Under the pieces are notes generated by a model, which saw nothing but the letters and a program-made list of their open reading frames with translations, was not told the DNA's origin and searched no databases. A DNA stretch of 64,000 bases, from positions 1 through 64,000 of the forward strand of contig POWY01000003.1 of the NCBI GenBank assembly GCA_003044455.1. The letters run 5' to 3'. The stretch's first letter is position 1. Every line of letters starts with the position of its first letter. The position numbers and the translations under genes were made by a program. This DNA comes from Neisseria bergeri (lineage in GTDB: Bacteria > Pseudomonadota > Gammaproteobacteria > Burkholderiales > Neisseriaceae). Shown in pieces: positions 58,431 to 59,275 of this stretch.

Positions 58431-59275
58431 GTGAACCGAACTACCTTCTGCTGCCTTTCTCTGACCACTGCCCTGATTCTGACCGCCTGCAGCAGCGGAG
58501 GCGGCGGAAGCGGAGGCGGCGGTGTCGCCGCCGACATCGGCGCGGGGCTTGCCGATGCACTAACCGCACCGCTCGACCATAAAGACAAAGGTTTGAAATC
58601 CCTGACATTGGAAGACTCCATTCCCCAAAACGGAACACTGACCTTGTCGGCACAAGGTGCGGAAAAACTTTCAAAGCCGGCGGTAAAGACAACAGCCTCA
58701 ACACGGGCAAACTGAAGAACGACAAAATCAGCCGCTTCGACTTCGTGCAAAAAATCGAAGTGGACGGACAAACCATCACGCTGGCAAGCGGCGAATTTCA
58801 AATATACAAACAGGACCACTCCGCCGTCGTTGCCCTACAGATTGAAAAAATCAACAACCCCGACAAAACCGACAGCCTGATAAACCAACGCTCCTTCCTT
58901 GTCAGCGGTTTGGGCGGAGAACATACCGCCTTCAACCAACTGCCCGGCGGCAAAGCCGAGTATCACGGCAAAGCATTCAGCTCCGACGACCCGAACGGCA
59001 GGCTGCACTACACCATCGATTTTACCAACAAACAGGGTTACGGCAGAATCGAACACCTGAAAACACCCGAGCAGAATGTCGAGCTTGCCTCCGCCGAACT
59101 CAAAGCAGATGAAAAATCACACGCCGTCATTTTGGGCGACACGCGCTACGGCAGCGAAGAAAAAGGCACTTACCACCTCGCCCTTTTCGGCGACCGCGCC
59201 CAAGAAATCGCCGGCTCGGCAACCGTGAAGATAGGGGAAAAGGTTCACGAAATCGGCATCGCCGGCAAACAGTAG
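58431..59275 (+). pseudogene. fHbp: Factor H binding protein gene, frameshifted (variant 3 type)
   Basis: GTG 58431 follows CTAGGAGTAAACCT. The start NRTTFCCLSLTTALILTAC is an intact lipoprotein signal with Cys, then a GGGGSGGGG linker and the mature domain VAADIGAGLADALTAPL. After AQGAEK the tract at 58663-58667 has five A; with six the frame would continue into FKAGGKDNSLNTGKLK and to the end EIGIAGKQ at 59275, giving 281 residues. As it stands, translation leaves frame and ends at 58715. Downstream residues (KIEVDGQTITLASGEFQ, LALFGDRAQEIAGSATVKIG) are of variant 3 / subfamily A. The surface lipoprotein that binds human factor H would not be made, unless the sequence has an error. Confidence 0.92.

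What the first reader, a model, noticed from the sequence alone, without database searches (positions are those of the whole stretch)
58431..59275. fHbp inactivated by loss of one A in a short homopolymer
The lipoprotein signal, ribosome-binding site and the complete variant 3-like coding sequence are present, but the tract at 58663-58667 has five A where six keep the frame. The frame breaks after about 77 codons. fHbp is a target of licensed serogroup B vaccines and recruits human factor H, so a null allele matters for vaccine coverage and biology. A five/six-A tract is also a place where sequencing error or slippage could occur. The rest of the gene shows no further decay, which suggests a recent event.
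Basis: partly seen in the sequence, partly recalled or inferred. Interest (0 to 1): 0.75.

Follow-up and report, generated by a model that had tools for sequence, protein, structure and literature searches.

The report
Broken vaccine-antigen gene in commensal Neisseria
The gene for factor H binding protein, a target of meningitis B vaccines, loses its reading frame and stops early in this genome, which shows no match to either of two capsule gene families tested and is therefore likely a harmless relative of the meningitis germ rather than the germ itself; one genome from each of three related species carries a different break in the same gene, so repeated loss is likely, and such losses are already known.

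Summary
A V3-type fHbp gene lies between cbbA and tsaB. Its frame is lost at the A5 tract 58663-58667, and the stop at 58713-58715 leaves a 94-codon stub with the lipobox; the remaining 176 codons stay open. The 5' RNA thermometer is present.

The interpretation needs correction. The genome is probably not a meningococcus: two capsule families have no match in it, while one of the six genomes compared (G019) has both, and it is 93.1% identical to G019 over 127 kb. It is likely an acapsulate commensal (species name not established), so vaccine coverage is not directly at stake.

New context: the four V3-type alleles compared (window, N. polysaccharea, N. viridiae, N. gonorrhoeae) each carry a private frame-breaking lesion, while both V1 alleles are open. 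A V1-type database stub loses frame at the same tract. One genome per species was seen, and published commensal strains with intact V3 exist. Sequencing error is not excluded, but split ORFs are no commoner than in G019. Frameshifted fHbp is already in print for meningococci and N. polysaccharea.

The parts
57210..58274 (+). cbbA (fructose-bisphosphate aldolase), conserved upstream neighbour of fHbp
   Evidence: Open frame of 354 aa; its last 100 bases are 93-98% identical upstream of fHbp in the five relatives. Gene name from PMC8026042 passages and recall.
58292..58325 (+). Terminator-like stem-loop between cbbA and fHbp
   Evidence: 15-pair stem with a T-rich tail (5 such sites found in the stretch, 2.6 expected from shuffles); PMC8026042 passages describe a Rho-independent terminator in this intergenic region.
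58385..58457 (+). fHbp 5' RNA thermometer, spanning the ribosome-binding site and start codon
   Evidence: Rfam RF02811, 104.8 bits against gathering 104; also in the five relative loci, two of five over gathering (104.8 and 104.6 bits), three below it (83.5 to 100.3 bits).
58431..58715 (+). 5' piece of fHbp: start codon, lipoprotein signal, Gly/Ser linker, most of FHBP_N, then 15 out-of-frame codons and TGA
   Evidence: (PF20937, 112.6 bits).
58663..58667 (+). A5 tract at which the reading frame is lost
   Evidence: alignment column 583, private to the window among four V3-type rows.
58745..59275 (+). 3' piece of fHbp in the other frame: C-terminal barrel, open to its normal stop
   Evidence: 176 aa open; PF08794, 104.6 bits; 26 distinct solved-structure sequences match, named factor H binding protein, lipoprotein or GNA1870 (the latter two older names for it, recalled), or constructs holding its parts.
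59414..60091 (+). tsaB, conserved downstream neighbour
   Evidence: Open frame of 225 aa; its first 100 bases are 90-99% identical downstream of fHbp in the five relatives. Gene name recalled.

Best explanation
In the assembled sequence the V3-type fHbp gene loses its reading frame at the short A tract 58663-58667 and stops at 58713-58715, so the strain is predicted to make at most a 94-residue lipidated stub and likely binds no factor H through this protein. The likely cause is replication slippage that changed the length of the tract (inferred). RNA thermometer, ribosome-binding site and signal peptide are in place, so the message is probably still made and translated up to the stop (inferred). 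The stub lacks the end of the N-terminal domain and the whole C-terminal domain. The downstream piece has no signal peptide, and no ribosome-binding site is visible before its first start-type codon, so it is probably not exported if made at all. The host is probably an acapsulate commensal of the N. meningitidis/gonorrhoeae/polysaccharea clade. The break fits a wider pattern in which V3-type fHbp is lost by different lesions in acapsulate relatives, which suggests that the protein is dispensable there.
For: Shown: the frame break and stop; the two Pfam halves in two frames; the thermometer; conserved synteny; neither capsule family in the window's genome, both in G019, 1 of 6 genomes; 93.1% identity to G019 over 127 kb. 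G019 carries an insertion of about 186 columns in the fHbp intergenic region where PMC8026042 describes a 187-bp AT-rich insertion in meningococcal allele fIR2 (passages), so G019 is very probably a meningococcus. Four of four V3-type rows carry frame-breaking lesions, each private, and two of two V1 rows are open. The database stub P0004 (V1-type, 12 member sequences, one contig) ends LMETATALIRAN; the G019 V1 gene read in the frame that follows directly after its tract gives LMETATASIRAN and then a stop, so the same tract has been hit in another variant. The 3' piece still looks constrained: pN/pS 0.015/0.032 against N. polysaccharea over 140 codons and 0.014/0.039 against N. viridiae over 135 codons. 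Assembly quality looks ordinary where it could be compared: 3 of 91 ORFs open in G019 are split in the window's contig, 4 of 93 the other way; of 40 frame-length gaps inside G019's ORFs the window's side is the shorter in 18.
Against: No reads were examined and no expression data exist for this strain. The pN/pS figures rest on eight differences each. Loss is not fixed in commensals: PMC8265630 (passages) reports nine of ten swab isolates and eight of eight fHbp-bearing archive strains with surface-detected fHbp, and its text puts two of the swab and five of the archive strains in variant 3; one search lists full-length V3-like proteins (P0013 to P0022, 273-282 aa, 88-94% identical to the 3' piece). 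The four-of-four count uses one genome per species. Species assignment rests on absence of two families and on identity, not on a named match. The ORF comparison covers the window only from about 54 kb on, and fHbp itself fell below its identity cut-off.
Confidence: 0.84

Rival explanations
1. The frame break is a sequencing or assembly error in a short homopolymer, and the real gene is intact.
For: The tract is a homopolymer; no reads are at hand; the assembly is a 40-contig draft.
Against: Split ORFs in this contig are no commoner than in the single-contig relative (3 of 91 against 4 of 93). The identical 94-aa product is listed on two contigs, though both may come from one isolate. The same tract is broken in a V1-type database entry with 12 member sequences. 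A five-base run is short for the usual homopolymer error (general knowledge).
Confidence: 0.1
2. The gene is leaky: ribosomes or RNA polymerase slip at the A tract often enough to make some full-length protein.
For: The last in-frame lysine codon lies in the A run; slippage on A runs is a published theme (PMC4363877 and PMC6260861, search listing with the start of the abstract only).
Against: No stimulatory structure 3' of the tract: folding z-score +0.23, 109 of 200 shuffles fold at least as well. Five A is short for transcriptional slippage (recalled). A comparable single-base break in meningococcal allele 669 abolishes detectable fHbp (PMC8549389, passages).
Confidence: 0.05
3. The tract is a contingency switch, with fHbp turned off and on by slippage within the population.
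For: The same tract is broken in V3 (window) and in V1 (P0004).
Against: The tract is shorter than a known Neisseria switch of this kind (csb is on with a run of nine A, PMC8553145 passages). The four V3 lesions compared lie at four different places, which is what decay gives, not a dedicated switch. Mixed populations were not examined.
Confidence: 0.05
4. The genome is a capsule-null meningococcus after all, so the allele bears directly on vaccine coverage.
For: Capsule-null meningococci exist (PMC6202450, passages); variant 3 fHbp was found in 274 of 3,065 UK disease isolates (PMC5875271, passages).
Against: Only 93.1% identity to the capsulate genome over 127 kb, a distance like that from N. 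gonorrhoeae, N. polysaccharea and N. viridiae near the locus (93.5-94.3%). The longest matching blocks of window 1-20000 in five relatives, G019 among them, are 90-98% identical (list cut).
Confidence: 0.06

Closest known systems
Frameshifted V3 fHbp alleles of N. polysaccharea (Muzzi 2013 as cited in PMC5607398 and PMC8265630; PubMLST allele 1539 in the latter)
   Same: fHbp gene in an acapsulate commensal, intact apart from a frame break
   Different: The N. polysaccharea ATCC 43768 lesion lies elsewhere (alignment column 732 against 583); the sequence and variant group of allele 1539 were not seen
Meningococcal fHbp allele 669 (single-base break at nucleotide 366, ST-11 complex; PMC8549389, passages)
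   Same: Frame break with early stop, rest of the gene present; there shown to abolish expression
   Different: A different position, and a meningococcal host rather than a likely commensal
Gonococcal Ghfp (PMC5607398 and PMC3731240, passages)
   Same: V3-like gene at the same site, no surface product
   Different: Ghfp keeps the barrels and loses the lipobox region by a break at position 40 (matches column 383); the window keeps the lipobox and loses the rest

Membership tests
Neisseria fHbp gene (V3-type) | Located between cbbA and tsaB | tested here: met
Neisseria fHbp gene (V3-type) | FHBP_N and FHBP_C domains | tested here: met
   on two separate pieces; FHBP_N only to profile position 75 of 92
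Neisseria fHbp gene (V3-type) | Closer to V3 than to V1 alleles | tested here: met
   94-98% DNA identity of the 3' piece to the N. gonorrhoeae, N. polysaccharea and N. viridiae genes, 65-66% over partial length to G008 and G019; PMC5607398 calls the gonococcal and polysaccharea homologues V3 (passages)
Neisseria fHbp gene (V3-type) | Lipoprotein signal with lipobox | tested here: met
   LTAC motif read directly in the translation; motif rule recalled
Neisseria fHbp gene (V3-type) | 5' RNA thermometer | tested here: met
   RF02811, 104.8 bits against gathering 104
Neisseria fHbp gene (V3-type) | One open frame across both barrels | tested here: not met
   the frame is lost at 58663-58667 and stops at 58713-58715
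Neisseria fHbp gene (V3-type) | Binds human factor H | not testable with these tools
   Needs protein work; predicted lost because most of the protein is missing
Frameshift-null fHbp allele | Single frame break with the remainder intact | tested here: met
Frameshift-null fHbp allele | No surface fHbp | not testable with these tools
   Needs flow cytometry or immunoblot
Neisseria meningitidis (encapsulated) | Capsule export and modification genes | tested here: not met
   PF05159 and PF02563 have no match in G000; G019 has both
Neisseria meningitidis (encapsulated) | At least 95% nucleotide identity to a meningococcal genome | tested here: not met
   93.1% over 127 kb of aligned blocks to G019; G019 is itself inferred to be a meningococcus
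Phase-variable switch gene | Long, highly slippery repeat tract | tested here: not met
   Only five A; what counts as long is recalled, with csb's nine A as an example
Programmed frameshift site | Stimulatory RNA structure downstream | tested here: not met
   Folding z-score +0.23

The most novel reading that the evidence does not exclude
V3-type fHbp is being actively lost across acapsulate Neisseria: four lineages have broken it independently by four different lesions, and the A tract near codon 79 is a shared weak point that breaks in V1 and V3 alike. Losing this exposed antigen may pay for species without a capsule that seldom meet blood complement.
Probability: 0.22. Interest if true: 0.55.

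Novelty: new member of a known kind. Interest (0 to 1): 0.33.

Why it matters
fHbp is in both licensed serogroup B vaccines, and commensal Neisseria that carry it may be affected by vaccine-induced antibodies (PMC8265630, passages). Knowing that some V3-carrying relatives hold broken copies bears on that forecast, and on whether factor H recruitment is needed for life in the throat. It also warns against reading a broken fHbp as a meningococcal vaccine-escape allele before the species is established.

Tried and rejected
Meningococcal vaccine escape: set aside because the genome has no match to two capsule families and is only 93.1% identical to the capsulate relative. Programmed or leaky frameshifting: no structure beyond chance. 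Error-prone assembly: split ORFs are about as common in the relative. The first count there (16 of 91 against 17 of 93) also takes in ORFs with an internal stop, many of them probably antisense ORFs, so only split-frame cases (3 and 4) were used; one of the 3 is split by an insertion of over 1 kb rather than by a short gap. In one search most frame-length gaps come in compensating neighbours, and 2 of the 40 lie in fHbp itself. A chance estimate for three further broken alleles in three genomes (about 4e-5 at 3/91, 0.005 at 16/91) is post hoc and uses one genome per species, so it is given little weight. The primary paper on commensal fHbp (Muzzi 2013) is not held; its content is taken from citing papers. 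A catalogue of 3' fragments gave two clusters: P0042, whose letters lie within the N. polysaccharea fragment and which is listed on 19 contigs, and P0046.

Full report
Observation. The gene starts at GTG 58431 behind an AGGAG ribosome-binding site, with lipobox LTAC and a Gly/Ser linker. There are exactly five A at 58663-58667. The frame that begins at 58431 reads as fHbp up to codon 79, adds 15 foreign residues and ends at TGA 58713-58715, for 94 residues in all. The other frame is open from 58745 to the normal end at 59275, 176 residues. Searched apart, the first piece matches Pfam FHBP_N (112.6 bits, profile 1-75 of 92) and the second FHBP_C (104.6 bits, profile 2-97 of 97). The 3' piece matches 26 distinct sequences of solved structures, named factor H binding protein, lipoprotein or GNA1870 (older names, recalled), or constructs with its parts.

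Setting. cbbA lies upstream and tsaB downstream, as in the five relatives whose locus was compared (G008, G014, G019, G022, G039). These five and the window are the only 6 of 46 Neisseria genomes with a long DNA match to the 3' piece and a strong FHBP_N match. A terminator-like stem sits between cbbA and fHbp. The sequence TACCGC upstream of the gene equals one of two -10 types described for meningococcal fHbp (PMC8026042, passages); the simple promoter scan reported no site there. The RNA thermometer RF02811 covers 58385-58457 at 104.8 bits against gathering 104 and appears in all six loci at 83.5 to 104.8 bits, three of six over gathering. Initiation signals are thus present, and the stub is probably translated (inference).

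Whose genome is it? Of six genomes tested (G000, G008, G014, G019, G022, G039), only G019 matches the capsule families PF05159 and PF02563; the window's genome (40 contigs, 99.98% complete) matches neither. PMC6202450 (passages) states that within the clade of N. cinerea, N. lactamica, N. bergeri, N. polysaccharea, N. gonorrhoeae and N. meningitidis only the last has capsule genes. G019 also carries an insertion of about 186 columns in the fHbp intergenic region, where PMC8026042 describes a 187-bp AT-rich insertion in meningococci (passages). So G019 is very probably N. meningitidis. The window's contig is 93.1% identical to G019 over 127 kb of aligned blocks of at least 500 bases, below the 95% line used for species in PMC6760525 (passages). 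Near the locus it is 94.3% identical to N. gonorrhoeae, 93.5% to N. polysaccharea and 93.9% to N. viridiae (8.6-10.5 kb each). G014, G022 and G039 are taken to be these three named genomes because their contigs have the same lengths. The best reading is a species of its own among the commensals of that clade, such as N. bergeri or N. uirgultaei; the name is a guess.

Comparison of lesions. Six loci were aligned. In the coding columns the four V3-type rows carry these private frame-length events: the window at column 583; N. polysaccharea ATCC 43768 at column 732, after which its frame stops at L005:5102; N. viridiae a 14-column gap at 1104-1117, after which its frame overruns the normal stop to L006:5627; N. 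gonorrhoeae at column 383, which is position 40 of the gene and agrees with the published lipobox break (PMC5607398, passages). The gonococcal gap in the linker brings the frame back, so there the barrels stay open. The remaining linker gap of the window (columns 424-429) is six bases and keeps the frame. Both V1-type alleles, in G019 and G008, are open. So four of four V3-type alleles are damaged in four ways, and two of two V1-type are not. This is one genome per species. Against it: PMC8265630 (passages) found nine of ten swab isolates of N. cinerea and N. polysaccharea with full-length fHbp, all nine surface-positive, two of them V3, and one frameshifted N. polysaccharea allele; its archive panel had eight fHbp-bearing strains, all surface-positive, five of them V3 by its text. 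One search also lists full-length V3-like proteins. Loss is therefore recurrent but not fixed.

The same tract in another variant. A search with the 94-residue stub returned 12 proteins among 68 candidates, of stub-like length because the tool admits only 0.55-1.75 times the query length. P0001 is the window's own stub, listed on two contigs. P0004 (86 aa, 12 member sequences, one contig) is V1-type and ends AEKLMETATALIRAN. The V1 gene of G019, read in the frame that follows directly after its own tract, gives LMETATASIRAN and then a stop. So the same tract has been broken in a different variant group, and the early stop falls at the corresponding place. How many isolates this stands for is unknown. 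The other ten are mixed: P0002 ends like the N. polysaccharea allele, some are broken at other places, P0006, P0011 and P0012 simply end early, and P0005 looks engineered. I did not work out each cause.

Is it an error? No reads were available. As a yardstick I compared ORFs of at least 150 aa between the window's contig and a 240-kb stretch of G019, which align from about 54 kb of the window onward. Of 91 comparable ORFs open in G019, 3 are split between frames in the window's contig; of 93 open there, 4 are split in G019 (fHbp itself fell below the identity cut-off). Frame-length gaps inside ORFs of at least 200 aa numbered 40 (ORFs of G019) and 43 (ORFs of the window's contig), most of them in compensating neighbours; of the 40, the window's side is the shorter in 18. 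This assembly is not unusually frame-broken, which lowers but does not remove the chance of error.

Age. The 3' piece differs from N. polysaccharea by 3 synonymous and 5 non-synonymous changes in 140 codons, from N. viridiae by 3.5 and 4.5 in 135, and from N. gonorrhoeae by 14 and 18 in 176. Rates per site are lower for non-synonymous changes in each case, and no second stop has appeared, which fits a recent break. The numbers are small.

Mechanism. Slippage at the tract (inferred) leaves a truncated lipoprotein that lacks the end of the N-terminal domain and all of the C-terminal one, predicted to be unable to bind factor H. In meningococci a comparable single-base break (allele 669) abolished detectable fHbp by immunoblot and went with lower serum resistance (PMC8549389, passages). 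No stimulatory RNA structure supports recoding.

Known or new. Frameshift-null fHbp is in print for meningococci (PMC8549389; PMC5875271 passages, give the rule that frameshifted alleles are scored null) and for N. polysaccharea, where a majority of isolates are said to be frameshifted (PMC5607398, passages). Searches listed no paper recognisable from its title or the start of its abstract as describing this tract as a recurrent break point or these lesions side by side; only passages of a few papers were read, and the main paper is not held, so this is weak evidence of novelty. Verdict: a new member of a known kind, with a modest comparative extra.

Noticed in passing
L006:5001-5627: The N. 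viridiae representative has a 14-base gap near the 3' end of fHbp, and its frame overruns the normal stop.
   Followed up: partly
L005:4611-5532: The N. polysaccharea ATCC 43768 fHbp breaks at a different place; a 3' fragment with the same letters (P0042) is listed on 19 contigs.
   Followed up: partly
P0004: A V1-type fHbp stub with 12 member sequences loses its frame at the same A tract as the window.
   Followed up: partly
G006, G013, G018, G023, G024, G026, G035, G036, G037: Nine further Neisseria genomes of 46 have weak matches (38-49 bits, above cut-off) to FHBP_N in open frames of 271-310 aa: distant fHbp-like proteins of unknown role; their surroundings were not looked at.
   Followed up: no
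L012:860-1200: The capsulate relative G019 carries an AT-rich insertion with inverted ends upstream of fHbp, like the one described for meningococcal intergenic allele fIR2.
   Followed up: partly
P0005: A database fHbp fragment ends in repeated SIINFEKL peptides and looks like an engineered construct rather than a natural allele (the peptide's origin is recalled).
   Followed up: no
P0046: A gonococcal-type fHbp fragment starts in another frame and passes into the normal frame inside the gene, which points to yet another damaged allele.
   Followed up: no
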